Origin: Desulfobulbus oligotrophicus
GTDB taxonomy: Bacteria; Desulfobacterota; Desulfobulbia; Desulfobulbales; Desulfobulbaceae
NCBI RefSeq assembly: GCF_016446285.1
Contig: NZ_CP054140.1
Location: 2,780,001 to 2,844,000, forward strand
DNA length: 64,000 nucleotides
Direction of reading: 5' to 3'
How positions within the stretch are numbered: position 1 is the stretch's first letter; each line of letters starts with the position of its first letter. The position numbers and the translations under genes were made by a program. The notes beneath the pieces were generated by a model. The model made no database searches and was not told the DNA's origin. It saw only the letters and a list, made by a program, of their open reading frames with translations. Shown here piece by piece: positions 39,157 to 62,686 of the stretch.

Positions 39157-40764
39157 TCACACCATGTCGGAAGATACACCGGAAAGAGCACCCGTCACCT
39201 CGCTGTACTGCAGCCAGACACGACGAAACTCCTCCTGGCTTGCAAGGAGGATATCCACGAGTCTGGGATCAAAATGTTTTCCGCGCTGTTCCCTGAAATA
39301 AGTCAGTACATCCTCCCAGCTCCACGCCTCGCGATAGATGCGTCGATTAGACAGGGCATCAAAGACATCGGCCACCGACACGATCCGGCTACTGATATGA
39401 ATTTCGTCACCGTTCAGACCGCGTGGATATCCCCGGCCGTCCCAGCGTTCATGATGTTCGAGAATAATTCGGGCCGCAGTGCGAATAACCGGGCTTCCGG
39501 AATTTGTCAGCAGTTCATGGCCCTGACGCACATGAGCCTGAATGATCTGATATTCCTCCGGGGTAAGCGGGCCGGGTTTATTTAAAACAGCATCCGGGAC
39601 ACCAATTTTACCAAGGTCGTGCAGAGTTGAGGCAAGCTTGAACATCTCAGCCTCCTCCTCGCTGAGGCCGTATTTCAAAGCAAGCAAACGTACATATTCG
39701 GCCACCCTGCGGACATGGCTGCCTGTCTCATCTGAACGGCACTCCATGGCCTCTGCCATATGGTAGATGATCTCCTTCTGCGATTCTTCAATGCCTCTGT
39801 TAAGGAACAGGTTGTCAAAGGCCAGGGAGACATTGGTAAAAAACAACTCAAGCAAATCACGATCGTCTTCGTCCAGCTCCTTGGCAATCTCAAAATAAAG
39901 GAAATTTTCCGAGCCGGTCTGACTTTTAAAGTACCAGGCACACTTACCGCTCTCGCAATAAAAACCGTGGGGACAGGATCGGGCCTGATCAAGAGCACCC
40001 CGCATCAGGGCGATTTTCACCTCACCAATCGGCTGATCGACATATTGGCTGAACTTCCCGGTTGCCGCCAGTACCACCGATTGTCCCTGGATTTTTGAAA
40101 CCGCCAATCCCGAGGAATGGCTATAAAGCGCATCCTCATGCAACTGAAGAATCGAGGTTAATTGATCTAAAACGCCGCTCCCTAATTTTTCTAAGGATTG
40201 ACGTTCAAAAATATCCCCTGAAGCATCGATGATCTTTCTCAGCCCTTTACGATTATTTTCAAGGGTCACAATAAAGTTGTAACTTCGCAGCGCGGATATG
40301 ACGGTGACCAGCATCCGCTCAAGGGTTAACTCTGTCTTTTCCCTGTAATCGTTGATGTCATACTCTAAGATGACTTTGGCCGGCGGTGCCTTACCTGGTT
40401 GACCGGTACGCAAAACTATCCGCACAGTATGATTGTTGAGTACCTCGCGAATATAGCGGACAAGCTGCAGACCGCTGTCATCGGTTTCCATCACCACATC
40501 CAGAAGAACAACGGCTATGTCATGGTGCCCGGCTAAGATCTGCCTGGCTTCCTGACCGCTGTAGGCATGGAGGAACTCAAACTTCTTGTTATGATACTCC
40601 ATGTCTTTGATCATATAGGTGGTGACACTGTGAACATCGACCTCATCATCAACAATCAGAATCTTCCATCTGTCCTGGGGAATACTGCCGTCAGCCCGGC
40701 TTTCACCCGGTTCCGGAGCTTCATCTTTAAAGAGAAGGGCATCATCGTCGATCATCATAGACAC
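39157..40764 (-). CDS. response regulator with DUF3369 and HD-GYP c-di-GMP phosphodiesterase domain
   Basis: A 535-residue protein. The receiver domain (about 30-160) has the Asp in VVLLDVVMETDDSG. A DUF3369 GAF-like domain follows (about 170-335), with a cysteine-rich stretch, SCPHGFYCESGKCAWYF, near residue 265. The HD-GYP domain (about 340-510) is complete: TLHDLGKIGVPD holds the HD pair and HHERWDGRGYPRGL the GYP motif, so c-di-GMP hydrolysis is expected. The partner sensor kinase ends 6 nt upstream. Phosphorylation should therefore change c-di-GMP levels, tying this pair to the PilZ proteins elsewhere in the window. Confidence 0.93.
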   Translation of the reverse strand: MSMMIDDDALLFKDEAPEPGESRADGSIPQDRWKILIVDDEVDVHSVTTYMIKDMEYHNKKFEFLHAYSGQEARQILAGHHDIAVVLLDVVMETDDSGLQLVRYIREVLNNHTVRIVLRTGQPGKAPPAKVILEYDINDYREKTELTLERMLVTVISALRSYNFIVTLENNRKGLRKIIDASGDIFERQSLEKLGSGVLDQLTSILQLHEDALYSHSSGLAVSKIQGQSVVLAATGKFSQYVDQPIGEVKIALMRGALDQARSCPHGFYCESGKCAWYFKSQTGSENFLYFEIAKELDEDDRDLLELFFTNVSLAFDNLFLNRGIEESQKEIIYHMAEAMECRSDETGSHVRRVAEYVRLLALKYGLSEEEAEMFKLASTLHDLGKIGVPDAVLNKPGPLTPEEYQIIQAHVRQGHELLTNSGSPVIRTAARIILEHHERWDGRGYPRGLNGDEIHISSRIVSVADVFDALSNRRIYREAWSWEDVLTYFREQRGKHFDPRLVDILLASQEEFRRVWLQYSEVTGALSGVSSDMV

Positions 40765-40770
40765 TCCACG

Positions 40771-42729
40771 TCAAACAGGTATAGTCATCTGAAAGACTGT
40801 TCCCTGTCCTGGTCGGCTTTCACAGCCGATTTCTCCACCAAGGGTTCGCGTAACCAGGTTAAAAACAATGTGCAATCCCAGCCCGGTGGAGCCGTGTTGC
40901 CGTGAGGTTGTAAAGAAGGGTTCAAACACTCGATCCTGCACCTCTGCCGGCATCCCTTTCCCGTTGTCCGAGTAGCGCATCTCTAAAACATTCTCTTGAC
41001 GTATGGCTTCAATCCGGATCTCACCGCTTTGATCTTCCGCAAAAGCATGGACAAGGCTGTTAATAATGAGATTGGTCAGAATTTGAGAAAAAGCACCGGG
41101 ATAACTTTCAATCACCAGATCCGGGTCGCATTCGACAACAATCCGGTGGCTGGTCTTCTTCAGCTTTGGTCGTAAGCTGAGCAGAATTTCATCGATATAT
41201 TCACGCAGGCGAAAAATCCGCCGATGTTCTGAGACCTGATCAACCGCCACCATCTTAAAACTGCGAATCAGATCTGAAGCACGGTTCAGATTAACCAGAA
41301 TCATATCGACGCCTTCACGGGAATCTTCCAGAAACTGCGTTAAATCAGAGCGTCTTATTTCACCTTTCGAGAAACGTTCCGTTAAAGTTTTATTTTTCTC
41401 AACAAGGGTTGAACTCGCAGAAAGGGCGACTCCTACCGGGGTGTTGATTTCATGGGCAACACCGGCCACCAACTCGCCCAGGGCAGCCAGCTTTTCCGAG
41501 AGGACCAGTTGTTTCTGGGTTCGCTGTAAATGCTCCAATGTCTGCTGTACATCCTGGTTGGCCTGGGCCAGCTGCTCGGTACGCTGCATGACACGGTGCT
41601 CCAACTCTTCATTGAGACGAAGCAACTCTTCCTGTGCAACCGATCGTTCGTGCTCTTTTTCTTCCAGCTCCATCGCCATACTGTCAAAGGCATTGGCTAA
41701 CCGGCCAAGTTCCCCCTCCTGAAAATCAATACCGGTACGACTGCTCAACTCACCGGATTTCAATCGATCCGTCGCCGCAATCAACTGGTTGAATCGACGT
41801 ATCAGGGTTCGCTCTCCAACAACCCAGGCCGTCGCAAGTGCCAATGCTGCCGCCAGAATCAGCAGCACCAAATTACGAAGGACAACAAACCGAGCCTCAC
41901 CCAGTGCCTGGTCAACCGGAATGCCAAGACGAATCATCAGATAAGGAAAGGATGCTCCTTGAAAATGAAGCCTCTTGAAACTGTACAGACGACGTACTCC
42001 ATCCACGCCTACTTTTAAAAAGGTCCCCTCCTCTTCTTCACCGGACATGCGTTCCACCATCTGCGGTAAATCCGGTACCCAGGTATACTTCTCCGTTTCA
42101 GGGAATCTTGTCAGACGCATACCTTTGGCATCGGTCAGGGTGAAGATCGACTGCTCAGGCAAATGAGTGTCTGCAAAGAGACGACCGAAGTAATTCAAAT
42201 CAAAGTCGGCAATCAGCATGCCCTTTGGCTGAAAATCATCGGCAAAAACCGGCTGCGCAAAATGAACAACAACCCGACGTTCATTTTTACGCAGAGTATA
42301 ATTGCCGACAGTAAAAACTCCGGACTGCAGGGCTTCTTGGAAAACATCGGCGGGTTGGGAAGTTGTCGACAGATCGGCAGGGGCAACGGCAAGCACACGT
42401 CCGTTGATATCGATCAGGGTAAAAGAAACATAGACCGTGTGATTGGCCAGAATTTCTGCAAGAAGCGTCTGACAGGCGTCAACGTCGAGTCGACGGACGT
42501 CTGCCGACCGGGCAATCGCCATGAGCAGCAACCGGGCATTCTCAACCACCCTCTCATGGTGAGCAGCCATGGCCTGCACCTGGCGCAGAGCATAGTTCTC
42601 AGCATCCAGGACCACCCTGTTACGTAGCTCCCGCCCGCTGTACAGCAAAATTGCCAGTGATGGGAACACTGCCAACAGTACCAGAACAAGCAACGTTCTT
42701 CGGATGGAGCCGAAAATAAAAAGGCGCAT
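40771..42729 (-). CDS. sensor histidine kinase with periplasmic Cache domain
   Basis: A 652-residue membrane kinase: helix 1 at about 8-30, a periplasmic Cache (dCache-like) sensor (about 35-275), helix 2 at about 285-305, HAMP (about 308-360), a coiled coil (about 360-415), HisKA with the phospho-His in VAGVAHEINTPVG, and HATPase with NLIINSLVHA, DNGKGMP and GSTGLGLHI. Cache domains usually bind small organic molecules. It is transcribed first, from a strong predicted promoter, with the HD-GYP response regulator 6 nt downstream. Confidence 0.93.
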   Translation of the reverse strand: MRLFIFGSIRRTLLVLVLLAVFPSLAILLYSGRELRNRVVLDAENYALRQVQAMAAHHERVVENARLLLMAIARSADVRRLDVDACQTLLAEILANHTVYVSFTLIDINGRVLAVAPADLSTTSQPADVFQEALQSGVFTVGNYTLRKNERRVVVHFAQPVFADDFQPKGMLIADFDLNYFGRLFADTHLPEQSIFTLTDAKGMRLTRFPETEKYTWVPDLPQMVERMSGEEEEGTFLKVGVDGVRRLYSFKRLHFQGASFPYLMIRLGIPVDQALGEARFVVLRNLVLLILAAALALATAWVVGERTLIRRFNQLIAATDRLKSGELSSRTGIDFQEGELGRLANAFDSMAMELEEKEHERSVAQEELLRLNEELEHRVMQRTEQLAQANQDVQQTLEHLQRTQKQLVLSEKLAALGELVAGVAHEINTPVGVALSASSTLVEKNKTLTERFSKGEIRRSDLTQFLEDSREGVDMILVNLNRASDLIRSFKMVAVDQVSEHRRIFRLREYIDEILLSLRPKLKKTSHRIVVECDPDLVIESYPGAFSQILTNLIINSLVHAFAEDQSGEIRIEAIRQENVLEMRYSDNGKGMPAEVQDRVFEPFFTTSRQHGSTGLGLHIVFNLVTRTLGGEIGCESRPGQGTVFQMTIPV

Positions 42730-43454: not shown

Positions 43455-44801
43455 TTATAAGGAAGTATCGACTGTGCTCTCTGCGGGGATACAGACAGCC
43501 CTGACATGATTCCGACAAGCTATGTCCTGGACACCGGCAAACCCCATGTCCATGTTCACATACCAGCTTTCATGATATCCGTGACGGTCACAGCTCCAGA
43601 GCCATTTCATTGTCTGCCCTGTGTTCTCCGCAGAAAAAAATGCCGCATAGCCGGCGTCTGACAGCATGCTCAACAACTCGTTGACAGTGGGAAGCCGCCA
43701 ATTCTGATACCCCTGAAACCGTTGTTTGTTCAACATCTCCACATAGCTGCGGGCTTCGGCAAGGGAGAGTGGAAACCGGCTGCCATGCCGCTGCCACACC
43801 AGATCCGTTGCCCGATCCCACACGATCTCTGCACCTGTCTCCAGCACATTACACACTGATTCCACCGGTCGCATCAGGGGGGTCACCCCAAAATGTTTTT
43901 GAGCCTGGGACCTGCGTACATTCAAAGATGTACGACGTAAAACCTTGGGTTTATCCCCTGCCTGAGGCACTGGACACCAGCGCTCTGAAGCCGATGGCAC
44001 CTTGGGGAGCTGCTCCAGGGCAACCAGCATCTCATCTGCGGATTGAAACCGCTCCTCCGGCTGCCAGCGCAACGCTTTAAGGAAAAAATCGTCCCAGGAC
44101 TGATCATACTGGGCATTGACCATGGACAAACTTAAACTCTGCATGCCCGGGAGCTTACCGGTGAGCATCCGATACAACAGCACTGCCGTTGAATAGAGGT
44201 CAGCCCGTCCATCAACGGCGTTTGGGTTTTTGCGTTGTTCCGGAGGAGTATAATACGGAGAACCGATCTGCATATTGCTTGGGCCTGAAAACGATGTGCC
44301 GTTAACCAGGGCCATACCGAAATCGCAGATTTTTATTATATCTTCGTCGGTGACCAGGATATTTTGTGGCTTTATGTCACGATGAACAATGTTGTTGTAG
44401 TGGAGAAAACCAAGGCCAGCCAGGATCTGCCGGCCATAATGCAACACCTTGGATGCCTGAATTATCCGGGAATCCTCCTCAAGATGAAAAGACTCACCAA
44501 TCATGTCCCCAAGATTGTTACAGATATAATCCATAACAAAAAAAGGCCGGCCTTGATCATCGTGGTCAAAGTCATGAACAGTGACGAGAAAAGGCTGGCT
44601 GAAGGTAGCCATGGTACGGGCTTCAAAGATGAAAATATCGCGTAACTGATCAACACCGAGGATGTCTTCCAACAGTTCGTTGGGATCAAGGATTTTGACG
44701 GCAACCACCTTATCAATAACCGGTACAATAGCCTTGTAGACCGACCCCATTCCTCCCTTGCCAAGACGGCGAACGACCTCGTATCGACCCACTTTCTTCA
44801 T
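43455..44801 (-). CDS. Hanks-type Ser/Thr protein kinase fused to a DUF1566 (Lcl_C) domain
   Basis: A 448-residue protein. Kinase domain (about 5-275): glycine loop GKGGMGSVYKA, catalytic Lys in VAVKIL, catalytic loop HRDIKPQNIL, DFG as ICDFGMA, and SPYYTPPEQ in the activation segment, all intact. After a linker, residues about 325-440 form a DUF1566 domain with WDRATDLVWQRHG, NWRLPTVNELLSM and a final HVRAVC. No membrane helix is visible, although DUF1566 domains are usually found in secreted proteins. ATG at 44801 has GGTGAG about 6 nt upstream. It starts 4 nt after the phosphoesterase stop. Confidence 0.9.
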   Translation of the reverse strand: MKKVGRYEVVRRLGKGGMGSVYKAIVPVIDKVVAVKILDPNELLEDILGVDQLRDIFIFEARTMATFSQPFLVTVHDFDHDDQGRPFFVMDYICNNLGDMIGESFHLEEDSRIIQASKVLHYGRQILAGLGFLHYNNIVHRDIKPQNILVTDEDIIKICDFGMALVNGTSFSGPSNMQIGSPYYTPPEQRKNPNAVDGRADLYSTAVLLYRMLTGKLPGMQSLSLSMVNAQYDQSWDDFFLKALRWQPEERFQSADEMLVALEQLPKVPSASERWCPVPQAGDKPKVLRRTSLNVRRSQAQKHFGVTPLMRPVESVCNVLETGAEIVWDRATDLVWQRHGSRFPLSLAEARSYVEMLNKQRFQGYQNWRLPTVNELLSMLSDAGYAAFFSAENTGQTMKWLWSCDRHGYHESWYVNMDMGFAGVQDIACRNHVRAVCIPAESTVDTSL

Positions 44802-44805
44802 TGGC

Positions 44806-45537
44806 TCACCAAAAAAGACGTTTAGCGTTGCTGCCTGGAAACCCGCGTTCACCCAGGAGTTGCATGGTGGTCTGGACATCATAGACAACAGACCGTATTT
44901 CAATGGTTGCCGCTTCCTGATCCCAAAGCACGTACTTCGCATGCCAGCTAAACATATCGCGTGGTTGTCCGACACTTCCACAAAGTAACAGATGACGGAC
45001 CTGTCTTGCGAGGTCAGAGTGACCGAGAGGCAACGGACAGCTTGTCACAGTGCTGTTATCCGACTGATGCCAACTGAGGTCGTGGGTATGACCAGCAAAA
45101 CAAATCCGCTCCGAATAGGCGGCAAATACACGCTGCAAACGGGTTTCTGTGGGATTGTACAGGTAGACTGTCATGGATTCCGGTGGACAGCCATGAACAA
45201 AACGAGTGTCGTTCCAGACAAGAGAACTGGGCAATGAGGTCAACCAGGATAAAGATTGTGCACTCAGCAGCGATCTGGTCAGATGCAGCGAATCCCGAGC
45301 AGTTGCATGGAAGCGGACAGAATAACTGCGACTGGCCAATCCGAGTTCGTGATTGCCCATCACCGAACACACTTTGCTCCTGATCAACGCCTGAACCACC
45401 TCTTCAGGCTCTGGACCGTAGCCGATATTGTCGCCCAAAGAGAAAATCCGGTCAACGGACAACAGGGCAATATCGGCCAAGACAGCCTCCAAGGCCCGAA
45501 AATTACCGTGAATATCTGCAAGAATCGCCACCCTCAT
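44806..45537 (-). CDS. calcineurin-like metallophosphoesterase
   Basis: A 243-residue phosphoesterase with the bimetal motifs DIHGN (about 8-12), GDNIGYGP, GNHE, and the later GHTHD. The YfcE/protein-phosphatase-like layout suits either phosphodiester or phosphoprotein substrates. Its start overlaps the ttcA stop by four bases and its stop is 4 nt before the Ser/Thr kinase start, so the two opposite activities are made together; that it reverses the kinase is an inference. Confidence 0.87.
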   Translation of the reverse strand: MRVAILADIHGNFRALEAVLADIALLSVDRIFSLGDNIGYGPEPEEVVQALIRSKVCSVMGNHELGLASRSYSVRFHATARDSLHLTRSLLSAQSLSWLTSLPSSLVWNDTRFVHGCPPESMTVYLYNPTETRLQRVFAAYSERICFAGHTHDLSWHQSDNSTVTSCPLPLGHSDLARQVRHLLLCGSVGQPRDMFSWHAKYVLWDQEAATIEIRSVVYDVQTTMQLLGERGFPGSNAKRLFW

Positions 45538-52799: not shown

Positions 52800-54182
52800 A
52801 TGCCTTATCTTCTGAACAAATATTATCCGGCTCGTAAGTTGATTTTTTTCTTAGGCGAAGGGTTTCTTATTTTTTCAAGTGTACTCGGTGTCCTTCTTCT
52901 CATTTCAGGATGGAAGCTGTTTTTCGCTGTCCCATCTGAATTTCTACCGAGAGCTCTTATTGTAACGATCGTCTTTCAACTGACTTTGTACTTTTTTGAT
53001 CTGTATGACTTCAGAAAAACCGGACCGACCGGCGAAACCTTTATGCGTATGATGCAGGCTTTCGGGGCTGGTTGTATAGTCTTAGCTTTTCTCTACTTTG
53101 TATTTCCATTCATTATTATCTCTACATCTACATTTTTTGGTTGTTATATTCTTATCTGCATAACTCTTTTATTGTGGAGATCACTCTATTATTTTATTCT
53201 TCAGAAAAAATTGTTAGCACAAGACATTATCATTATCGGCACCGGAGAAATGGCTGCCAGAATTGTCCTTGAAATTCTTGAGAACAAGGAGTCCGGCTTC
53301 ATCATTGCAGCAATTATCGGCAACAACCCTCCAGTTTTTGATCATCAGAATATTCCTGTCTTTCATACCTTCAGTGACCTGAACAGTAACCCGGTCCTTT
53401 CAGAAATCGATCATATTGTTGTCGCTCTTGATGACCGCCGGGGAGTCATGCCGACCACCGATCTCCTCGAAAAAAAATTACAGGGGAAACTCATTGAAGA
53501 TGGGATATCCTTTTACGAGACCATCACCGGTAAAATTCTCATCGAAAAAGTAAATCCTGCCTGGCTCATTTTCTCCGAAGGGTTTGACTACGGCCGCCTG
53601 GCCTATCTTTCCAAACGCATCTTAGATCTTTTTCTTGCATTCATCGGGCTTGTGTTGAGCCTGCCGATATCTATAGTGACAGCCATTCTCATCCGACTTG
53701 AATCACCAGGTCCTGTTCTCTACAGGCAGGAACGGGTAGGAGAACGTGGCAAATCATTTTACATCTTAAAGTTCCGGTCAATGCGCCAAGATGCTGAAAA
53801 AAATGGTGCTGTCTGGGCAGCAACAAACGATAGCCGTGTCACTCGCGTCGGTCGCTTCATCCGGAAAGTTCGCATTGATGAAATCCCACAGATGTGGAAT
53901 GTTGTTCTCGGCCAGATGAGCTTTGTCGGTCCCCGGCCTGAACGACCTGTCTTTGTCAATCAATTGGTCCAGAAACTGCCGTATTACTCATTACGTCACG
54001 CCACTAAGCCAGGCATCACCGGGTGGGCGCAGGTATGTTATCCTTATGGAGCATCTGAAGAAGACGCCCTGCGCAAGCTCGAATATGATCTGTATTATAT
54101 TAAACATCAGTCTTTTTTTATTGATCTTTTGATTGTCTTCCGCACCGTTAAAACGGTTCTTTTTCAAAAAGGCGCTCGATGA
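52800..54182 (+). CDS. polyprenyl-phosphate sugar-1-phosphate transferase (exopolysaccharide initiation)
   Basis: A 460-residue membrane enzyme of the WbaP/EpsE (polyisoprenyl-phosphate hexose-1-phosphate transferase) family, which loads the first sugar phosphate on undecaprenyl phosphate. Several N-terminal membrane helices (about 12-125), a Rossmann-like middle (DIIIIGTGEMAARIVLEIL, about 142-160) and the C-terminal catalytic domain from about 265: KRILDLFLAFIGLVLSLPI helix, RQERVGERGKSFYILKFRSM, and VGPRPERPVF. The layout is closest, as I remember it, to the TIGR03013 group linked to PEP-CTERM/exosortase polysaccharide loci, but no exosortase is seen here. It ends 13 nt before the giant repeat protein. 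Confidence 0.88.
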   Translation: MPYLLNKYYPARKLIFFLGEGFLIFSSVLGVLLLISGWKLFFAVPSEFLPRALIVTIVFQLTLYFFDLYDFRKTGPTGETFMRMMQAFGAGCIVLAFLYFVFPFIIISTSTFFGCYILICITLLLWRSLYYFILQKKLLAQDIIIIGTGEMAARIVLEILENKESGFIIAAIIGNNPPVFDHQNIPVFHTFSDLNSNPVLSEIDHIVVALDDRRGVMPTTDLLEKKLQGKLIEDGISFYETITGKILIEKVNPAWLIFSEGFDYGRLAYLSKRILDLFLAFIGLVLSLPISIVTAILIRLESPGPVLYRQERVGERGKSFYILKFRSMRQDAEKNGAVWAATNDSRVTRVGRFIRKVRIDEIPQMWNVVLGQMSFVGPRPERPVFVNQLVQKLPYYSLRHATKPGITGWAQVCYPYGASEEDALRKLEYDLYYIKHQSFFIDLLIVFRTVKTVLFQKGAR

Positions 54183-54195
54183 CCCCCACTCTACC

Positions 54196-57100
54196 ATGAC
54201 TTTCTCATCTCCTTCCTCTGCCACCGATCGCCACAGTCTGCTCCTGGACTTCTCTGTCCGTTTGTATACGGCCCTCAGAACAATGCGGCTTTATCCAAGC
54301 ACCAACCCGCAGGTCCAGCGGAGCAATGACTTTTTCTTTAAGACATTCAGTGCACTCCTGACGCATCAGACAACAGAAAGATCAGTCACCATTGCCTGTT
54401 CAGACGGCAGGCTGCTTATCTGCGGAGAACATCTCACAGACAAAGACCACGCTCGCCCGCAGATCCAGGGTCTGATCACCCTTTTTAACCGGTTGCAGAT
54501 TCATTCACTCACCTTCCATGAAGCGTTCACCACCAGAGAATGCAGCTTCTTTGTTGAACTTCTTTCTTCATTCTTAGCGGAAAAAGAGGCGAGCAGATCT
54601 ATAGCCTCATTGTTATCCGAAGCGGATATTACCTCTGTCACCGTTGATACCATGAAGTATGTTGTCCTCCGTGAAGGCGAACAGGTCGTTAACGAGGAAC
54701 TGATCGGATCCGGACTTGATATCAGCGACGAAGAGTTGACCAATTTTATCCTTGAGCATGGTGCTCAGGAAATGATCCCGGGTGTTTCGTCGACATTGGT
54801 TGATCAACTCATCGGTCAACTGTCGGCTACAGGGACTATTTCAGACGAACAGTCCGAAGATATCAACAAAACAGTCATCGATCTTTTACAACAACTGAGT
54901 CAGGAACCCGGAGCTGCTGCACATGACCAGAAAATAGCCGGTATCGCAAACCACCTGGCAGGCCTTGATCCTTCAGTGCTCGCACAACTTGTTGCTCATC
55001 TGCCAATCACAGCGGATACCGACAGTGTTTTAAGTACGATCTTCAACCGCATTCCACCTGAACATCTTCATTCCTTACTTTCAAATCTCACCCTGCAGCA
55101 CATCTTGTCACCCCAGGGAGATGTGCGGCAGCATCCCATGACTGCTGACAATGCACTCTCCTGGATTACACACCTGGAACAGACAGGTCCGCCTGATGTC
55201 AGCAAGGCCATTGCCCAGAACATCGATGCACGACAGCTGCTGCTTAACCCGGACACACCGATCAGCCAGCTGCCCGAACACCTGCTCCAACGCCTCAGAC
55301 AGCCGGAGTGGTCGGCACCGGTTATCACGGCCGCAGCCAGACAGGTCAGTGATCCGCAGGCCCACACAGAAGGCCAGACTGATTTTGCCGCCTTTAACCG
55401 CATGCTTGCCCACTACGAACAGCTGCTGAGCAAGGAGCAGCAGACCCGGGTTGCCCGGCAGGCTGGAGCTGAACTGGCCTCCATGGAAGGCATTGCACTG
55501 GGCAATATCCTGGCCCAGCGGTTCAAGGGACTCTTTGGCGAGCAGCTCTACTCCCAGGTCCTCAACCAGGTGTCAGACCAGCTGCTGGACGAGACCATTG
55601 AACACCTCACCCCCAAGCAGCTCAACCGCATGGTTGCCACCCTGATCAGCGACATCCCGCTGCAGATCGGTAAAGACAAGGATCCCGGCTTCAAGCCTGT
55701 TGATGATATCCTGTTCAAGCGGCTGGCACAGACCAGGCGGGGACCGGAGCTCAGCAAGGCCATTGCCCAGAACATCGATGCACGACAGCTGCTGCTTAAC
55801 CCGGACACCCCGATCAGCCAGCTGCCCGAACACCTGCTCCAACGCCTCAGACAGCCGGAGTGGTCGGCACCGGTTATCACGGCCGCAGCCAGACAGGTCA
55901 GTGATCCGCAGGCCCACACAGAAGGCCAGACTGATTTTGCCGCCTTTAACCGCATGCTTGCCCACTACGAACAGCTGCTGAGCAAGGAGCAGCAGACCCG
56001 GGTTGCCCGGCAGGCCGGAGCTGAACTGGCCTCCATGGAAGGCATTGCACTGGGCAATATCCTGGCCCAGCGGTTCAAGGGACTCTTTGGCGAGCAGCTC
56101 TACTCCCAGGTCCTCAACCAGGTGTCAGACCAGCTGCTGGACGAGACCATTGAACACCTCACCCCCAAGCAGCTCAACCGCATGGTTGCCACCCTGATCA
56201 GCGACATCCCGCTGCAGATCGGTAAAGACAAGGATCCCGGCTTCAAGCCTGTTGATGATATCCTGTTCAAGCGGCTGGCACAGACCAGGCGGGGACCGGA
56301 GCTCAGCAAGGCCATTGCCCAGAACATCGATGCACGACAGCTGCTGCTTAACCCGGACACCCCGATCAGCCAGCTGCCCGAACACCTGCTCCAACGCCTC
56401 AGACAGCCGGAGTGGTCGGCACCGGTTATCACGGCCGCAGCCAGACAGGTCAGTGATCCGCAGGCCCACACAGAAGGCCAGACTGATTTTGCCGCCTTTA
56501 ACCGCATGCTTGCCCACTACGAACAGCTGCTGAGCAAGGAGCAGCAGACCCGGGTTGCCCGGCAGGCCGGAGCTGAACTGGCCTCCATGGAAGGCATTGC
56601 ACTGGGCAATATCCTGGCCCAGCGGTTCAAGGGACTCTTTGGCGAGCAGCTCTACTCCCAGGTCCTCAACCAGGTGTCAGACCAGCTGCTGGACGAGACC
56701 ATTGAACACCTCACCCCAAAGCAGCTCAACCGCATGGTTGCCACCCTGATCAGCGACATCCCGCTGCAGATCGGTAAAGACAAGGATCCCGGCTTCAAGC
56801 CTGTTGATGATATCCTGTTCAAGCGGCTGGCACAGACCAGGCGGGGACCGGAGCTCAGCAAGGCCATTGCCCAGAACATCGATGCACGACAGCTGCTGCT
56901 TAACCCGGACACACCGATCAGCCAGCTGCCCGAACACCTGCTCCAACGCCTCAGACAGCCGGAGTGGTCGGCACCGGTTATCACGGCCGCAGCCAGACAG
57001 GTCAGTGATCCGCAGGCCCACACAGAAGGCCAGACTGATTTTGCCGCCTTTAACCGCATGCTTGCCCACTACGAACAGCTGCTGAGCAAGGAGCAGCAGA

Positions 57101-60100
57101 CCCGGGTTGCCCGGCAGGCCGGAGCTGAACTGGCCTCCATGGAAGGCATTGCACTGGGCAATATCCTGGCCCAGCGGTTCAAGGGACTCTTTGGCGAGCA
57201 GCTCTACTCCCAGGTCCTCAACCAGGTGTCAGACCAGCTGCTGGACGAGACCATTGAACACCTCACCCCAAAGCAGCTCAACCGCATGGTTGCCACCCTG
57301 ATCAGCGACATCCCGCTGCAGATCGGTAAAGACAAGGATCCCGGCTTCAAGCCTGTTGATGATATCCTGTTCAAGCGGCTGGCACAGACCAGGCGGGGAC
57401 CGGAGCTCAGCAAGGCCATTGCCCAGAACATCGATGCACGACAGCTGCTGCTTAACCCGGACACACCGATCAGCCAGCTGCCCGAACACCTGCTCCAACG
57501 CCTCAGACAGCCGGAGTGGTCGGCACCGGTTATCACGGCCGCAGCCAGACAGGTCAGTGATCCGCAGGCCCACACAGAAGGCCAGACTGATTTTGCCGCC
57601 TTTAACCGCATGCTTGCCCACTACGAACAGCTGCTGAGCAAGGAGCAGCAGACCCGGGTTGCCCGGCAGGCCGGAGCTGAACTGGCCTCCATGGAAGGCA
57701 TTGCACTGGGCAATATCCTGGCCCAGCGGTTCAAGGGACTCTTTGGCGAGCAGCTCTACTCCCAGGTCCTCAACCAGGTGTCAGACCAGCTGCTGGACGA
57801 GACCATTGAACACCTCACCCCAAAGCAGCTCAACCGCATGGTTGCCACCCTGATCAGCGACATCCCGCTGCAGATCGGTAAAGACAAGGATCCCGGCTTC
57901 AAGCCTGTTGATGATATCCTGTTCAAGCGGCTGGCACAGACCAGGCGGGGACCGGAGCTCAGCAAGGCCATTGCCCAGAACATCGATGCACGACAGCTGC
58001 TGCTTAACCCGGACACACCGATCAGCCAGCTGCCCGAACACCTGCTCCAACGCCTCAGACAGCCGGAGTGGTCGGCACCGGTTATCACGGCCGCAGCCAG
58101 ACAGGTCAGTGATCTTGCAGAAACAACCACTTCCAATGACGCATTAGCCACTTTTGAGCAGCTCCTCACTCGTTGCGACTCTCTGTTCGACCCTGCACAA
58201 CAAGTCCTCATTGCCTCGCAAGTTGCCTCACAACTGATTACTCTCGATGAAAAAAGTCTCGGCCGGCTTTTGGTGCATAAATATAAAAGCCTTTTTGGCG
58301 ACCAGTTGTATCGTCAGGTCATCAGCCGGTTATCGGAAGATAAACTGGAAAAACTGATAACACACATCAAGACACTTGCCGAAAGTTCCGGCAGCGAACA
58401 GGGTGATCTCAAGGACACGGAGGTGGAAAAAACCTTTCAAAAACTTCAACAAACAGCTCGTAAAGAGAAGATGCGAAGTTTGGTTGCCCTGTACCAGGCC
58501 AAGAAAAAAGCAACCGAGGAAAAACGCCAAACTACTGTACAGACAGGTTTACATTCCCTTCTCCAGGGCGACCTCAGGGCTCTCAATAAAAAGGCACTCC
58601 TGGAAGCGCTGCCAACAATCATTCATGACCTGCTCAACAGCAACGAAGAGAAGAAAGCTGACGACCTGCTCATGCAGCTGGCCATCGGTACACAAAATCC
58701 TGAACCGTCAATCAGCCGGAACGCCTTCACCGCACTGGCAGCCGTCAGTGAGCAGTTCGTCAACATGGGCCAATGGGAGCGATTAAAAAGGTTGTTACCG
58801 GCCTTACAGCGCGGGTTACAAACAGGAGGCATCAGCGAACAGGCCGCAGAGCAGGTTACCGTCGCCATTGGTGCCCTGACCAAACAGTATCTGACAGAAA
58901 AACGATATACCCAGGCAGCGGAGACAGCACAGATCCTTCGCTCGCTTACCGCACACACAGCAACCGACGATCCTGTTGATCCCTCTGTTCGCCAACACGC
59001 GGCAGCAGCACTCAAAAAACTGAGTACTGTACCGACACTGGAACATCTGCTCGAGCTGTATCTCCACTCTGAAACTCATCAGGAGGCTGCAGCGCGATTG
59101 CTTGGTGAACTGGGAACCGAATCAGCAGAGTACCAATTACAGCAGCTGATGGACAGCGACAGTCGGTTTGAACGGAAAAGGTTGTTGAGTCTGATCAAAC
59201 AAACAGGAAACCCGGCCTTATCCATTCTACTGGAGCAGCTGCAGAAAGATCCTCCATGGTTTGTGGTCCGCAACATTATTCGCTTACTTGGAGATATCGG
59301 TACCCCCGAGCTCTTTACCACTATTCAACCGTTTATCCATCATTCAGACGTTCGTGTCCAGGAAGAGGTCCTCAACGCGTCAGTAAAAATCGGCAACGAA
59401 GATCTTAAAGATTTTCTGCTCCAGACCCTTCAGACAGCGGACAACACCTTAAAGCCTAAAGTGGTTCAGCTCATTGCCACGCACCATGACGAGCGATTTG
59501 TTCGACCATTAACCGAACTGCTGGAAAGCACGAAATCCTTTGCAGGTAAAGGTGAACATGATCTGCAACTGGCTATCTGTCGAACGCTGGGGAACATCGG
59601 TTCAAGACGTGCAGGAGCTTCGCTGACACGGGTGGCGGAAAGTAAAACCATGCTTGGAATCGCTGGTTACAGTGATGAGGTTCGCCAGGCAGCTGTAACC
59701 GCCCTGAAACAGATACGAAAGGCAACTGAGCAACGGTCGCTGGAAGAATCTGCAGCCATCGACAGAGGGCCTTCTAAAGAGACAACACCGCCATCATCCC
59801 TTCCTGCCGCTGAGACGGTGACGGAACAGGAAGCCGCCATTTTTCAGCTTGCTGATGAAGGCAAACGAGAATCAGCCATACAACAGCTAGTCGATCTTAT
59901 TAGTGCTACTGCCCAAGCCGGAGATTTTAAAACCGCTGAACGACTCAGAGAACGTATCTATGAAATAGACGGCATGGCACTCGGCCCTATTATACGCACT
60001 GGTGAACTTATTGAGCAGGCAAAGATGGGTACAATCAAAGAAGAAGACAAGGAGATATGGGCAACCTTACGAAAGCATCTTACAGCCCAGGAATTTCAGA

Positions 60101-60804
60101 CAATCTACCATGAACTCAATGAACAGCAGTATAAACCGGAAGATACGATCGTCAGCCAGGGTGACAAAAACGATGCCCTCTTTTTCATCACCCAGGGCAG
60201 CGTCAAAGTCTCTCATCGTGTTGGGACACGGGAGTTATTTATAACTACGTTGAACCGTGGAGAGATGGTCGGAGAAAACTTCTTTACACCATCTGTCTGG
60301 ACCGCAACCCTGACTTCATTGACACCATCAAGAGTACACGTTTTACCTCAAGCCGCATTAGCTGCGTGGCAAGAGCAGTTTCCAGGTTTGCGTGGCAAAC
60401 TGCACACCTACTACCTTGCCAATAACACCATACGTACAACGCTGGAGAAAAAAGGGCTGGAGCGGCGAACCGATCATCGTTACTCTCTTTCACGTAAAAT
60501 CCAGGTTCAGCCGATCAACAACCTGGAAAAACCTATCGGCCGTGGATTTCGTGCCGAAACCATCGACATTTCGCTGGGTGGTCTGGCCTTTCTGATCCGG
60601 ATATCCCGTCAGGAAAATGCACGGCTTTTACTCGGCAGAAAAATGCAGATCGTTCTTCCGGTTGGCGGTAAAATCCAATTCATGCATTTAAAAGGCCTGG
60701 TCATCGGTATTCAGCCGTTTCAGGTTTTAGAAAACGACTTTTCCGTTCATTTCAAATTCGACCAACCTCTTGCATCACAGGCATTGCAGAACATTTTAGG
60801 ATAA
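54196..60804 (+). CDS. giant 2202-residue repeat protein with HEAT-like, cyclic-nucleotide-binding and PilZ domains
   Basis: No signal peptide or membrane helix is seen, so likely cytoplasmic. Residues about 1-150 form a helical N-terminal domain (RLYPSTNPQV is seen in other deltaproteobacterial HEAT proteins). About 150-335 hold a diverged repeat; 336-1255 are five 184-residue units identical in protein sequence, then a partial unit (1256-1306) and a diverged version (about 1307-1390). A coiled-coil linker leads to HEAT-like repeats (about 1500-1855), a cyclic-nucleotide-binding fold (about 1966-2080, TIVSQGDKNDALFFITQGSV, GEMVGENFF) and a PilZ domain (about 2089-2200, RTDHR and DISLGG). Start is the ATG at 54196; a TTG at 54133 overlaps the sugar transferase. 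Expression should be coupled to that gene. Function unknown; a receptor or scaffold for two nucleotide messengers is inferred. Confidence 0.88.
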   Translation: MTFSSPSSATDRHSLLLDFSVRLYTALRTMRLYPSTNPQVQRSNDFFFKTFSALLTHQTTERSVTIACSDGRLLICGEHLTDKDHARPQIQGLITLFNRLQIHSLTFHEAFTTRECSFFVELLSSFLAEKEASRSIASLLSEADITSVTVDTMKYVVLREGEQVVNEELIGSGLDISDEELTNFILEHGAQEMIPGVSSTLVDQLIGQLSATGTISDEQSEDINKTVIDLLQQLSQEPGAAAHDQKIAGIANHLAGLDPSVLAQLVAHLPITADTDSVLSTIFNRIPPEHLHSLLSNLTLQHILSPQGDVRQHPMTADNALSWITHLEQTGPPDVSKAIAQNIDARQLLLNPDTPISQLPEHLLQRLRQPEWSAPVITAAARQVSDPQAHTEGQTDFAAFNRMLAHYEQLLSKEQQTRVARQAGAELASMEGIALGNILAQRFKGLFGEQLYSQVLNQVSDQLLDETIEHLTPKQLNRMVATLISDIPLQIGKDKDPGFKPVDDILFKRLAQTRRGPELSKAIAQNIDARQLLLNPDTPISQLPEHLLQRLRQPEWSAPVITAAARQVSDPQAHTEGQTDFAAFNRMLAHYEQLLSKEQQTRVARQAGAELASMEGIALGNILAQRFKGLFGEQLYSQVLNQVSDQLLDETIEHLTPKQLNRMVATLISDIPLQIGKDKDPGFKPVDDILFKRLAQTRRGPELSKAIAQNIDARQLLLNPDTPISQLPEHLLQRLRQPEWSAPVITAAARQVSDPQAHTEGQTDFAAFNRMLAHYEQLLSKEQQTRVARQAGAELASMEGIALGNILAQRFKGLFGEQLYSQVLNQVSDQLLDETIEHLTPKQLNRMVATLISDIPLQIGKDKDPGFKPVDDILFKRLAQTRRGPELSKAIAQNIDARQLLLNPDTPISQLPEHLLQRLRQPEWSAPVITAAARQVSDPQAHTEGQTDFAAFNRMLAHYEQLLSKEQQTRVARQAGAELASMEGIALGNILAQRFKGLFGEQLYSQVLNQVSDQLLDETIEHLTPKQLNRMVATLISDIPLQIGKDKDPGFKPVDDILFKRLAQTRRGPELSKAIAQNIDARQLLLNPDTPISQLPEHLLQRLRQPEWSAPVITAAARQVSDPQAHTEGQTDFAAFNRMLAHYEQLLSKEQQTRVARQAGAELASMEGIALGNILAQRFKGLFGEQLYSQVLNQVSDQLLDETIEHLTPKQLNRMVATLISDIPLQIGKDKDPGFKPVDDILFKRLAQTRRGPELSKAIAQNIDARQLLLNPDTPISQLPEHLLQRLRQPEWSAPVITAAARQVSDLAETTTSNDALATFEQLLTRCDSLFDPAQQVLIASQVASQLITLDEKSLGRLLVHKYKSLFGDQLYRQVISRLSEDKLEKLITHIKTLAESSGSEQGDLKDTEVEKTFQKLQQTARKEKMRSLVALYQAKKKATEEKRQTTVQTGLHSLLQGDLRALNKKALLEALPTIIHDLLNSNEEKKADDLLMQLAIGTQNPEPSISRNAFTALAAVSEQFVNMGQWERLKRLLPALQRGLQTGGISEQAAEQVTVAIGALTKQYLTEKRYTQAAETAQILRSLTAHTATDDPVDPSVRQHAAAALKKLSTVPTLEHLLELYLHSETHQEAAARLLGELGTESAEYQLQQLMDSDSRFERKRLLSLIKQTGNPALSILLEQLQKDPPWFVVRNIIRLLGDIGTPELFTTIQPFIHHSDVRVQEEVLNASVKIGNEDLKDFLLQTLQTADNTLKPKVVQLIATHHDERFVRPLTELLESTKSFAGKGEHDLQLAICRTLGNIGSRRAGASLTRVAESKTMLGIAGYSDEVRQAAVTALKQIRKATEQRSLEESAAIDRGPSKETTPPSSLPAAETVTEQEAAIFQLADEGKRESAIQQLVDLISATAQAGDFKTAERLRERIYEIDGMALGPIIRTGELIEQAKMGTIKEEDKEIWATLRKHLTAQEFQTIYHELNEQQYKPEDTIVSQGDKNDALFFITQGSVKVSHRVGTRELFITTLNRGEMVGENFFTPSVWTATLTSLTPSRVHVLPQAALAAWQEQFPGLRGKLHTYYLANNTIRTTLEKKGLERRTDHRYSLSRKIQVQPINNLEKPIGRGFRAETIDISLGGLAFLIRISRQENARLLLGRKMQIVLPVGGKIQFMHLKGLVIGIQPFQVLENDFSVHFKFDQPLASQALQNILG
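55201..58113 (+). repeat. in-frame tandem array: five 552-bp units plus a 153-bp partial unit
   Basis: Unit starts are at 55201, 55753, 56305, 56857 and 57409, with a partial copy at 57961-58113. Each unit begins AGCAAGGCCATTGCCCAGAA. By eye only three positions vary: ACA or ACC early in the unit, GCT or GCC in the middle, CCC or CCA late; all are synonymous. Units four and five look identical. The length of 552 is 184 codons, so gain or loss of a unit keeps the frame. Confidence 0.97.
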
Positions 60805-60907: not shown

Positions 60908-62686
60908 ATGCCCAACGTCATTGCTCGCTTTTATCTTCAACACCTGCCGGGAGCAAAACTCAAGAACTCTGTGCTCTATGCCCCCTGTCCCTTCTGTGCT
61001 CAAAAAGATGCACAAGAAAAAGGTCAGTTAACCGCTGTTCTCAATCCGGAAAACTTTTTCCACGGTTATTTTCGATGTTCCAGCCTCTGTGTTCCCGGAG
61101 GTTTTCCCCTGCACTTTGCCCGACTTCGTGGAATCAGTTCTGCCGAGGTGCCGGGATTCGACCCGGATCGGGAATATTTTGGCCATGATGTTGACTATCC
61201 CGCAAAAAACATCAACCACGAACTACCTGGTTTTGTCGATAAGCTCATTGGGGAGCCGCCCTCCTCTTTTCAGACTGTGCCCATTTCTGAAAAAATAATA
61301 AAAGAGCTGCACATCGGGTATAATGGCCGCTATCTCGTCTATCCGTATATCCAACCGGATGGCAACTGCTATGCAGCCCGTTGTGTACACCCGGAACGGC
61401 CGGAAGATTCTTTCTGGTATGGAGACGAGCGTTTTGCCGTTGAACCGTTCTGCCTGTTTAATGGACCGGCAGTTGAACACTGCGAAAACGGGGCGCTCTT
61501 TGTTGTCGAAGGTGAACAAAACCTGCTCCCTCTCAAACAGATCGGTCTACCGGGCATTGCTGTACCAACCGCAGGTGATCTTGAACATCTGGACACTCGT
61601 AGACTGCAGTGGATCAGGACTGTCTTTCTTTGGGTCAATCACGGTGCCGAATCTGCAGCCATGGCCAGATCCTTTGCCACCAGGACCGGTTATAAGGTGC
61701 GCCTGATCCGCTGGCCGGAACACGCTGCACGTAACAGCTCTATTTTCCAGTTAGCCGCCACCACCGGCCCGGTTTTTCAAAAACAGGTTTTTACCCTGCT
61801 GAAAGAGGCACGGGCTTTCTCACCGTTTTCCAGCCCAGCCGGTGAATACCAGACCTTTAATGAACGCCTGGCCATGGAGTCCGGTGACTCCTACACCAGC
61901 CTTACCACCGGTTTTATCCGAATGGATCAGGCCCTTAACGGTATCCATGGTATCAATATCATGGGAGGAACACCCAAGGCCGGTAAATCGACATTTTTTA
62001 TTCAAATCGCCTCAGAGATGGCGCTGCGAAAAATTCCGGTCATCTATTACGACTTTGAAAACGGCCGACAAAAAATCTACCTGCGCATCCTCAGTCGCTT
62101 AAGCCGACTCGCCATCGACCAGATCAAACAGAACAATCTAGTGTCGCTGGAACAACAACGACTTCAGCAGTCGAAAAAACAACTGCAGGCTCTGCTCCAC
62201 TGGCTGCGTGTGGTCAATGACCGCAAACTCTCGCCGGAGATCATGCGACGTCATATTGATTTTCTGCGCCATGAAACCAACAGCCCCTACACGGTTGTGG
62301 TGATTGACAGCCTGCACAAACTGCCTTTCAAGGACATCAGTCAAAAACGCAGTGGCATCGACGGCTGGCTCAGACATCTGGAGGCAATTCGTGATGAGCT
62401 GGGAGTTACCTTTCTCGTTATTTCAGAACTCGAACGCAGTACCGACGGCCAGTTCGAACAGCTGCCCCATCTCGGATCCTTTAAGGGTTCGGGAGATATT
62501 GGGTACTCTGCGGACAATGCCATGGTGCTACTCCCTCAATGGGCCCCCTTTGATGCCACGCCTCCAACGGATCGATGCAACGAACTCTGGCTGGTGGCCA
62601 GTCGCGAACAGAGCCCCGGGAAGGTGGCTGCCTATCGGCTTGATTTCCCGTTCTGGGGATTTACAGAAGAAGCAGTTTCAATGTGA
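60908..62686 (+). CDS. primase/helicase-like protein: zinc finger, degenerate TOPRIM, RecA-like ATPase
   Basis: A 592-residue protein with the order of a T7 gp4/Twinkle-type primase-helicase. N-terminal zinc finger: C27-x2-C30 and C57-x3-C61. TOPRIM-like region (about 130-280): the Glu motif is kept (LFVVEGEQ, Glu201) but where DxD should be it reads LWVNHGAES (about 241-249), so primase chemistry is doubtful. RecA/DnaB-like ATPase (about 330-590): Walker A GGTPKAGKST (353-362), Walker B VVVIDS (Asp467), then LVISELER and GSGDIGYSADNAMVLL. It starts 103 nt after the giant protein and overlaps the 3' end of convergent trmFO by 55 bp. Not flanked by phage genes. Function unknown; DNA repair, replication or a defence-like role are possible. 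Confidence 0.8.
   Translation: MPNVIARFYLQHLPGAKLKNSVLYAPCPFCAQKDAQEKGQLTAVLNPENFFHGYFRCSSLCVPGGFPLHFARLRGISSAEVPGFDPDREYFGHDVDYPAKNINHELPGFVDKLIGEPPSSFQTVPISEKIIKELHIGYNGRYLVYPYIQPDGNCYAARCVHPERPEDSFWYGDERFAVEPFCLFNGPAVEHCENGALFVVEGEQNLLPLKQIGLPGIAVPTAGDLEHLDTRRLQWIRTVFLWVNHGAESAAMARSFATRTGYKVRLIRWPEHAARNSSIFQLAATTGPVFQKQVFTLLKEARAFSPFSSPAGEYQTFNERLAMESGDSYTSLTTGFIRMDQALNGIHGINIMGGTPKAGKSTFFIQIASEMALRKIPVIYYDFENGRQKIYLRILSRLSRLAIDQIKQNNLVSLEQQRLQQSKKQLQALLHWLRVVNDRKLSPEIMRRHIDFLRHETNSPYTVVVIDSLHKLPFKDISQKRSGIDGWLRHLEAIRDELGVTFLVISELERSTDGQFEQLPHLGSFKGSGDIGYSADNAMVLLPQWAPFDATPPTDRCNELWLVASREQSPGKVAAYRLDFPFWGFTEEAVSM

What the first reader, a model, noticed from the sequence alone, without database searches (positions are those of the whole stretch)
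55201..58113. Five near-identical 552-bp tandem repeats inside a 6.6-kb gene
Repeats of 184 codons are identical in protein sequence and differ by three synonymous sites that I could see; the sixth unit is cut after 51 codons. Such similarity means very recent amplification or ongoing homogenisation. Since each unit keeps frame, copy number could vary between cells and change protein length, as in phase- or size-variable surface and adhesion proteins, but this protein looks cytoplasmic. That combination is unusual.
Basis: partly seen in the sequence, partly recalled or inferred. Interest (0 to 1): 0.85.

Follow-up and report, generated by a model that had tools for sequence, protein, structure and literature searches.

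The report
Self-homogenising repeat array in signalling protein
A large, probably internal signalling protein of a Desulfobulbus bacterium carries five near-identical copies of one helical building block whose number differs from species to species, and the copies that are kept identical are also unusually rich in G and C, which makes the gene a natural test of whether DNA exchange in bacteria favours G and C.

Summary
The array is real: 55199-58114, five 552-bp units plus 156 bp, with exactly three variable sites, all synonymous. It lies in a 2202-residue gene (ATG 54196) of a Desulfobulbus genome. The protein has a new all-helical repeat domain, then HEAT repeats, a cyclic-nucleotide-binding-like domain and a PilZ domain with the usual c-di-GMP motif. 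Related species carry 0, 1, 2, 3 or 5 full internal units between two diverged end units, so the gene comes in steps of about 184 residues. Here units are 99.4-100% identical, against 84-85% to the sister species; similar homogenised arrays occur in several lineages. That is concerted evolution. Unexpectedly, these units have third-position GC of 0.75, against 0.50 in the rest of the gene. In this gene the step follows the edge of the identical tract, runs against ribosomal-protein codon usage, and is shared with the sister species despite heavy synonymous divergence. Across 14 genomes it rises with unit identity, with exceptions. GC-biased gene conversion, disputed in bacteria, fits best but is not proven. 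Copy number varying between cells was not testable. New variant of a known kind.

The parts
54196..60804 (+). Whole gene from the likely ATG (ORF open from TTG 54133); 2202 aa
   Evidence: many relatives align from about residue 20 of the longer ORF
54196..54888 (+). N-terminal region, no Pfam match; present also in G005, G026 and G027, which lack the repeats
54889..55359 (+). N-terminal end unit (N-cap): diverged copy of the repeat; its last part (from 55199) belongs to the identical tract
55199..55750 (+). Unit 1 (site pattern A/T/C at unit positions 59/266/416)
55751..56302 (+). Unit 2 (C/C/C)
56303..56854 (+). Unit 3 (C/C/A)
56855..57406 (+). Unit 4 (A/C/A)
57407..57958 (+). Unit 5 (A/C/A)
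57959..58114 (+). Partial sixth unit, 156 bp, 52 codons
58147..58539 (+). C-terminal end unit (C-cap), diverged copy of the repeat, GC3 not raised
58465..59727 (+). HEAT-repeat helical region (approximate range, from the model's well-predicted helices)
60124..60366 (+). Cyclic-nucleotide-binding-like domain (PF00027)
   Evidence: ligand unknown
60460..60783 (+). PilZ domain (PF07238) with RxxxR (about 60466-60480) and DxSxxG (about 60565-60582), invariant in the 10-row alignment A3
   Evidence: motif names recalled
60908..62686 (+). Downstream DnaB_C-like ATPase gene; found on 18 of 24 related stretches tested, directly downstream in 16
   Evidence: with ORF positions

Best explanation
The gene encodes a probably cytoplasmic PilZ-type c-di-GMP effector with an alpha-helical solenoid inserted between its N-terminal region and its HEAT / cyclic-nucleotide-like / PilZ core. 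The solenoid is an in-frame tandem array of one 184-residue unit. Unequal crossing-over and gene conversion between units (presumably RecA-dependent, between sister chromosomes) repeatedly expand, contract and homogenise the array, while purifying selection keeps the unit's protein sequence. Shown here: the array, unit-number steps between species, homogenisation within several genomes, signs of exchange between units, GC enrichment of homogenised units. Inferred: the recombination pathway, cytoplasmic location, c-di-GMP binding, and that the solenoid acts as an adjustable-length spacer or docking scaffold. The GC enrichment is most simply a by-product of repeated conversion that favours G/C (inferred; see the novel case).
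For: Array and three synonymous sites. Full internal units: 5 in G000, G014 and D. rhabdoformis DSM 8777; 3 in G001, G009, G070; 2 in G017, G023, G073, G075; 1 in G002, G004, G006, G007, G033; end units only in G022, G058, G059, G061, G064; no repeat region in G005, G026, G027. Open-frame lengths of the uncut genes step accordingly: 953-994, 1263-1299, 1448-1474, 1648-1690, 1828-1903, 2203-2242 aa. Within-genome unit identity: G000 99.4-100%, G014 units 1-4 98.3-99.2%, D. rhabdoformis units 1-3 91.7-94.7%, G023 94.4% DNA; G000 to sister G015 84.4-84.8%, while G015's own 126-bp overlap differs at 2 sites. Units of G000, of G014 (1-4) and of G023 form clades. All four combinations of unit sites 59 and 416 in G000, and 7 of 231 site pairs in G014. 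Synonymous changes dominate: 10 of 12 variable codons in G014 units 1-4, 37 of 47 in D. rhabdoformis units 1-3. The identical tract runs about 52 codons into the N-cap, as expected for exchange at homologous stretches. AF2: helical solenoid, 10 helices per unit, mostly pLDDT 70-90. PilZ motif columns invariant in 10 rows.
Against: No population data, so variation within a species is unproven, and a single recent burst in G000 cannot be separated from continuing homogenisation in that genome alone. Several arrays are not homogenised (best pair G001 71%, G017 66%, G070 48%, G073 45%), and one starred clade of the unit tree crosses genomes (G019 with unit 2 of G010). Over the whole homogenised tract of G014, which reaches into unit 5, 9 of 22 variable sites are non-synonymous. 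No functional data; the spacer or scaffold role rests on architecture alone. AF2 had only 7 and 10 sequences; the N-terminal region and the PilZ / cyclic-nucleotide part were poorly modelled.
Confidence: 0.75

Rival explanations
1. Assembly artefact: the true array has fewer units, duplicated by the assembler.
For: No read depth available; contigs end inside the array in G015, G019, G071 and G074, and G010 has a 100-N gap there, so this locus is hard to assemble.
Against: Three variable sites distinguish copies in a mosaic. G014, also one contig, has five units with distinguishing variants, and the isolate D. rhabdoformis has five.
Confidence: 0.07
2. The high GC3 of the units is the relic of one horizontal acquisition from a GC-rich donor.
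For: GC3 0.75 against 0.50 with sharp edges in G000. The decay argument for a single pair is not absolute: by my own hand reckoning an ancestral fourfold GC of about 0.95 could still give today's values.
Against: G000 and G015 units differ by 0.87 substitutions per fourfold site yet keep GC4 0.74 and 0.78, while the part from the C-cap onward (0.76) sits at 0.51 and 0.50. Raised GC3 also occurs in arrays of another genus, G023 and G071. In samples of 242 class and 297 phylum genomes units were found only in this family, with weak end-unit-like matches in three genomes of one other family, so no donor is in sight there.
Confidence: 0.1
3. Selection on codons or on mRNA/DNA structure, perhaps multiplied by the number of copies, keeps the units GC-rich.
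For: A synonymous change spread to five copies has five-fold effect, which would mimic biased conversion. Single-unit genomes also lean positive (logit 0.03 to 0.36 in 5 genomes), units exceed end units in 16 of 18 gene pieces, and the N-caps of G071 and G074 are raised as well (z 3.0 and 3.2).
Against: The shift runs away from ribosomal-protein codon usage: operon GC3 0.44, rest of gene 0.49, unit 0.75 in G000; the order operon < rest < unit held in all 6 genomes compared. The diverged end units in the same mRNA show no shift in G000.
Confidence: 0.25
4. Size-variable protein in the sense of contingency loci, with unit number changing within a clonal population to alter function.
For: In-frame, near-identical 552-bp units are good substrates for recombination; unit number differs between species.
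Against: No two strains of one species were available; the differences seen are between species.
Confidence: 0.35

Closest known systems
Periscope Proteins (variable-length bacterial surface proteins; passages of PMC8201768 and PMC9704523)
   Same: Tandem in-frame folded domains of more than 50 residues with very high DNA identity; repeat number differs between homologues; homologous recombination is the proposed cause.
   Different: Periscope Proteins are defined as cell-surface attached, with folds quoted as about 50-165 residues and length variation seen between strains; the review notes a subset without wall-attachment motifs, with cell-wall enzymes as examples. This protein shows no surface domain in Pfam, is all-helical with 184-residue units, carries PilZ and HEAT domains, and variation is shown only between species.
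Alpha-solenoid scaffolds (HEAT/ARM; CAND1, importins, PP2A-A)
   Same: The modelled units are stacked helices; Foldseek's listed hits are mostly HEAT/ARM proteins.
   Different: Only 1 of 730 matches is at E <= 0.001 and TM-scores of the 50 rows shown are 0.23 or less. Usual solenoid repeats are about 40 residues and diverged (recalled); here a super-unit of 10 helices is copied identically.
MgtE_N / FliG-like ARM motif (PF03448)
   Same: The whole protein scores 37.5 bits (cut-off 25.9).
   Different: A single unit gives 13.5 bits, E 0.11, so the score of the whole protein comes from adding identical copies. Not a member on this evidence.
PilZ c-di-GMP effectors
   Same: PilZ domain above Pfam's cut-off (28.4 against 22.5 bits) with RxxxR and DxSxxG kept in the 10-row alignment.
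   Different: Fused to a cyclic-nucleotide-like domain, HEAT repeats and an expandable solenoid. A search of the paper library for at least 4 of the 5 terms PilZ domain, HEAT repeat, cyclic nucleotide-binding, c-di-GMP, solenoid found no paper.

Membership tests
Periscope Protein class | Long in-frame tandem repeats with very high DNA identity | tested here: met
   552 bp, 99.4-100%
Periscope Protein class | Cell-surface attachment | tested here: inconclusive
   No surface-anchor or export domain in Pfam; intracellular-type domains instead. No signal-peptide program was available
Periscope Protein class | Repeat number varies between closely related strains | not testable with these tools
   One genome per species; between-species variation shown
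PilZ effector | PilZ domain with RxxxR and (D/N)xSxxG | tested here: met
   28.4 bits, cut-off 22.5; columns invariant in 10 rows; motif recalled
PilZ effector | Binds c-di-GMP | not testable with these tools
   needs a binding assay
MgtE_N (PF03448) | Single domain above the curated cut-off | tested here: not met
   13.5 bits against 25.9 for one unit
cNMP-binding domain (PF00027) | Domain above the curated cut-off | tested here: met
   52.4 bits against 27.5; whether it binds a nucleotide is unknown
Concerted evolution | Copies within a genome more alike than copies between genomes, with flanks diverging normally | tested here: met
   Met for G000, G014 units 1-4, G023, D. rhabdoformis units 1-3 and, on short overlaps, G015 and G071; not for the diverged arrays
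GC-biased gene conversion | GC at synonymous sites rises with recombination, independently of codon selection | tested here: inconclusive
   Met in correlation, but identity within arrays is only a proxy for recombination and selection is not excluded
GC-biased gene conversion | Conversion tracts favour G/C over A/T at mismatches | not testable with these tools
   needs a marked-array conversion assay

The most novel reading that the evidence does not exclude
The array is a within-gene record of GC-biased gene conversion in bacteria: units that convert each other are driven to high third-position GC, while diverged end-unit sequence of the same gene, under the same mutation, expression and replication setting, stays at background. 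Young variants inside arrays mostly go to A/T while what becomes fixed is G/C.
Probability: 0.38. Interest if true: 0.85.

Novelty: new variant of a known kind. Interest (0 to 1): 0.62.

Why it matters
Near-identical in-frame arrays are best known from bacterial surface proteins, where length is thought to move a binding tip away from the cell (passages). Here the same genetic trick appears in a protein with the domains of an intracellular second-messenger effector, and its relatives form a series with 0, 1, 2, 3 and 5 units, which makes length a testable variable. Whether biased gene conversion raises GC in bacteria is disputed: Lassalle et al. 2015 argue for it (abstract), and Bobay and Ochman 2017 are reported to reject it outright (passages of PMC6867656). 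A gene that carries homogenised and diverged copies of one domain side by side controls for gene, expression and chromosomal place, which genome-wide comparisons cannot do.

Tried and rejected
Tandem Repeats Finder does not list the array (period over 500). The first genome-contig scan with the full protein found no relative; a second with the conserved C-terminal alignment gave nine loci and the genus. The MgtE_N match of the whole protein was rejected after testing one unit. My first guess of a cable-bacterium genome was not borne out; the related records are titled Desulfobulbus, Desulfobulbaceae or uncultured bacterium. A literature search on cable bacteria and tandem repeats gave one paper, on other genes. 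Searches for intragenic repeats with concerted evolution (15 of 46 papers listed) and for Desulfobulbus with repeats (8 of 860 listed) showed no paper on this gene. A search for GC-biased conversion with tandem repeats, concerted evolution and bacteria gave 7 papers; passages of one, PMC13061034, show the terms only in methods and references, the other six were seen as listing only. Translational selection as cause of the GC shift was tested and runs the wrong way. A one-off GC-rich donor was tested by fourfold-site divergence and judged unlikely. The first correlation (n = 13) used numbers I entered by hand; it was redone by script with 14 genomes, where the three broken genomes G015, G071 and G019 still carry hand-entered overlap identities. 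Left out of that count: 5 single-unit genomes (shown apart), G016 (irregular) and G074 (one unit split over two contigs). RNA-family and tRNA scans showed nothing in the array.
Full report
OBSERVATION. At lag 552 the sequence matches itself from 55199 to 58114 with four mismatching pairs that reduce to three variable sites. The array is five 552-bp units plus 156 bp. Patterns at unit sites 59, 266 and 416 are ATC, CCC, CCA, ACA, ACA and A. All three are synonymous third positions. The ORF is open from TTG 54133 to 60804; an ATG at 54196 is the likely start because many relatives align from about residue 20. The window lies at 2,780,001-2,844,000 of a 3,102,012-bp single-contig genome.

ORGANISM AND RELATIVES. 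Nine related loci in named records are titled Desulfobulbus (seven, including D. alkaliphilus DSM 24258 and D. rhabdoformis DSM 8777), Desulfobulbaceae (one) or uncultured bacterium (one). Of 55 relatives searched, 46 match the whole protein at E <= 0.001, many only in its HEAT or cyclic-nucleotide part. With one unit as query 27 of 73 genomes of the family match. With the unit alignment 30 of 242 class genomes match (27 in this family; three weak end-unit-like matches in one other family), and 4 of 297 in an even draw from the phylum, all in this family. In these samples the repeat is a lineage-specific domain.

ARCHITECTURE. N-terminal region without Pfam match, diverged N-cap unit, five identical units, diverged C-cap unit, HEAT repeats, cyclic-nucleotide-binding-like domain, PilZ. 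AF2 models the units as a helical solenoid of 10 helices each, mostly pLDDT 70-90 (7 sequences, whole-model mean 63.5), and the HEAT part mostly at 75-95 (10 sequences, mean 67.5); the N-terminal 215 residues and the last 250 are poorly modelled. Foldseek finds mainly generic HEAT/ARM proteins, 1 of 730 matches at E <= 0.001 (50 rows shown). Three single units tested (this genome, D. alkaliphilus, D. rhabdoformis) reach no Pfam cut-off. The PilZ motif columns are invariant in the ten-row alignment; the motif itself is recalled. The downstream DnaB_C-like gene lies on 18 of 24 related stretches tested, directly downstream in 16 and some kb away in two (L042, L046); the upstream sugar transferase on 5 of 24; some stretches end too early to show either (with ORF positions).

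UNIT NUMBER. Full internal units: 5 in G000, G014 and D. rhabdoformis; 3 in G001, G009, G070; 2 in G017, G023, G073, G075; 1 in G002, G004, G006, G007, G033; none but end units in G022, G058, G059, G061, G064; no repeat region in G005, G026, G027 (units of G070 and G073 that start at model position 5 count as full, as; the G006, G017, G059 and G064 genes run into a contig end). G016 is irregular: a unit without its first 29 positions is fused to N-cap sequence, and the gene lacks the middle of the core. G015, G019, G071 and G074 contigs end inside the array and G010 has a 100-N gap there, so their numbers are minimal; G060's contig begins in the N-cap. Length rises in steps of one unit. The section is optional: the N-terminal region joins the HEAT-PilZ core directly in G005, G026 and G027.

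CONCERTED EVOLUTION. Within-genome DNA identity is 99.4-100% (G000), 98.3-99.2% (G014 units 1-4, with unit 5 at about 80%), 91.7-94.7% (D. rhabdoformis units 1-3, pairs with units 4 and 5 at 65-73%), 94.4% (G023); other arrays are diverged: G009 73-83%, G010 76%, G075 77%, G001 62-71%, G017 66%, G070 and G073 under 50%. G000 units are 84.4-84.8% identical to the full unit of sister G015, whose own cut neighbour differs from it at 2 of 126 bases. In G071 the two contig pieces are 97.4% identical over 233 bases. The tree of 29 units (made before D. rhabdoformis and the further genomes were added) has six starred clades: G000; G000 + G015; G014 units 1-4; G023; G001 units 1-2; and, across genomes, G019 with unit 2 of G010. 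15 of 22 inner branches are unresolved and the bootstrap had not settled. Sites 59 and 416 show all four combinations in G000, and 7 of 231 site pairs do in G014: exchange between units, or repeated mutation. Within arrays 10 of 12 variable codons (G014 units 1-4) and 37 of 47 (D. rhabdoformis units 1-3) are synonymous; over G014's whole tract, which reaches into unit 5, 9 of 22 variable sites are non-synonymous. In G000 the identical tract runs about 52 codons into the N-cap.

GC ENRICHMENT. GC3 is 0.75 in G000 units, 0.51 in the end units and 0.50 elsewhere in the gene. Given the amino acids and the gene's own codon usage, a unit should have 0.52 (z 6.2-6.6); N-cap and C-cap fit expectation (z 0.1 and -0.1). 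In 363 overlapping windows of 175 codons from 35 other ORFs of the window that I chose, the maximum is 0.657 and none reaches 0.74. Other homogenised arrays: G015 z 6.9, G023 4.1 and 4.7, G014 2.3-3.2 (units 1-4; 1.5 in unit 5), G071 pieces 5.8 and 3.9, D. rhabdoformis 1.3-2.0 (units 1-3) against 1.1 and -0.5 (units 4, 5). Less alike or unknown: G010 3.8 and 2.2; G075 3.1 and 2.8; G019 5.0 (first piece) and -1.1 (last unit); G073 0.6 and 2.9; G009 0.9, 1.1, 3.1; G001 0.5, 2.0, -0.8; G017 -0.7, -0.3; G070 0.6, 0.4, 1.4. N-caps are raised too in G071 (3.0) and G074 (3.2), and low in G014 (-3.2). In G000 the step follows the identical tract: 0.45 in the 100 codons before it, 0.70 in its first 60 codons, which lie almost wholly in the N-cap, and 0.51 after it. 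One unit length against flanks gives Fisher p = 4.7e-7 (G000), 0.0038 (G014), 0.042 (G023) and 0.05 (D. rhabdoformis); the first 60 codons hardly differ from the 100 before in G023 (0.78, 0.75) and D. rhabdoformis (0.57, 0.52). The part of the N-cap next to the array is richer than the rest in all five genomes looked at (G000 0.72 against 0.45, G014 0.76/0.60, G023 0.90/0.76, G071 0.62/0.50, G074 0.68/0.52; 30-53 codons each, cut points in G071 and G074 chosen by eye). Across 14 genomes with two or more units the excess rises with the best within-genome identity (Spearman 0.66-0.67, p about 0.01; 0.63 without G015, n = 13, p 0.02; 0.72 in Desulfobulbus alone, n = 9, p 0.03). Genomes are not independent; D. 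rhabdoformis is weak (+0.04) and G010 and G075 are high (+0.11) at 76-77% identity. Units exceed the partial and end units of the same gene in 16 of 18 gene pieces, single-unit genes included (Wilcoxon p 0.00014), so part of the effect is not tied to present homogeneity.

WHAT MAINTAINS IT. Between G000 and G015 fourfold sites differ by 0.87 substitutions per site in the unit and 0.76 from the C-cap onward, yet GC4 stays 0.74/0.78 in units and 0.51/0.50 in the latter. A single foreign origin would need an extreme starting value. Ribosomal-protein operon stretches have lower GC3 than the rest of this gene in all six genomes compared (0.44 against 0.49 in G000), so translational selection would push the other way; the ORFs were picked by script around rplB and not named one by one, and G015 was left out because its match is partial. 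Young variants lean to A/T: 24 of 31 strong/weak synonymous singletons in D. rhabdoformis (p 0.003), 5 of 6 in G014 (p 0.22), and all three G000 sites if G015, which has C at each, shows the ancestral base (read from the alignment). Taking the minority base as young is an assumption. Together this means A/T mutation input and G/C-favouring fixation, stronger in the array; biased conversion explains it, and selection on composition is not excluded.

FUNCTION. Best guess: an intracellular c-di-GMP effector whose solenoid is an adjustable spacer or docking surface between the N-terminal region and the sensory core. Location, ligand and role are inferred from domains. Cell-to-cell variation of unit number remains untested.

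LITERATURE SEEN. Periscope Proteins: passages of PMC8201768 and PMC9704523. GC-biased conversion: abstract and outline of PMC4450053, passages of PMC6867656 and of PMC13061034; Bobay and Ochman 2017 seen only as cited in PMC6867656. MgtE_N / FliG-like ARM motif: passages of PMC13023049. PMC10580974: passages. All other papers were seen as search listings only.

Noticed in passing
55068-58211, minus strand: Repeated antisense ORFs of 101-151 aa across the array; probably an echo of G/C-ending codons on the plus strand, not tested as genes.
   Followed up: no
1-453, minus strand: Part of a 16S rRNA gene at the window edge, with a selA gene at 861-2294 on the other strand.
   Followed up: no
60908-62686: DnaB_C-like ATPase directly downstream of the array gene in 16 of 24 related stretches tested; far below NCBI's DnaB cut-offs.
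   Followed up: partly
43455-44981, minus strand: Protein kinase domain joined to an Lcl_C domain, an unusual pairing to my knowledge.
   Followed up: no
39157-42729, minus strand: Neighbouring dCache-HAMP histidine kinase-like and response regulator-DUF3369-HD_5 genes, a possible second c-di-GMP-related system in the window.
   Followed up: no
18621-21482: 953-aa ORF whose only Pfam match at E <= 1e-5 is a C-terminal OmpA domain.
   Followed up: no
L039 (G010), about 5092-5191: A 100-N gap inside the first internal unit, after which the reading frame changes; an unresolved place in that assembly.
   Followed up: partly
L049 (G016): Irregular relative: a shortened unit fused to N-cap sequence and the middle of the core missing; draft contig, could be real or an assembly join.
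   Followed up: no
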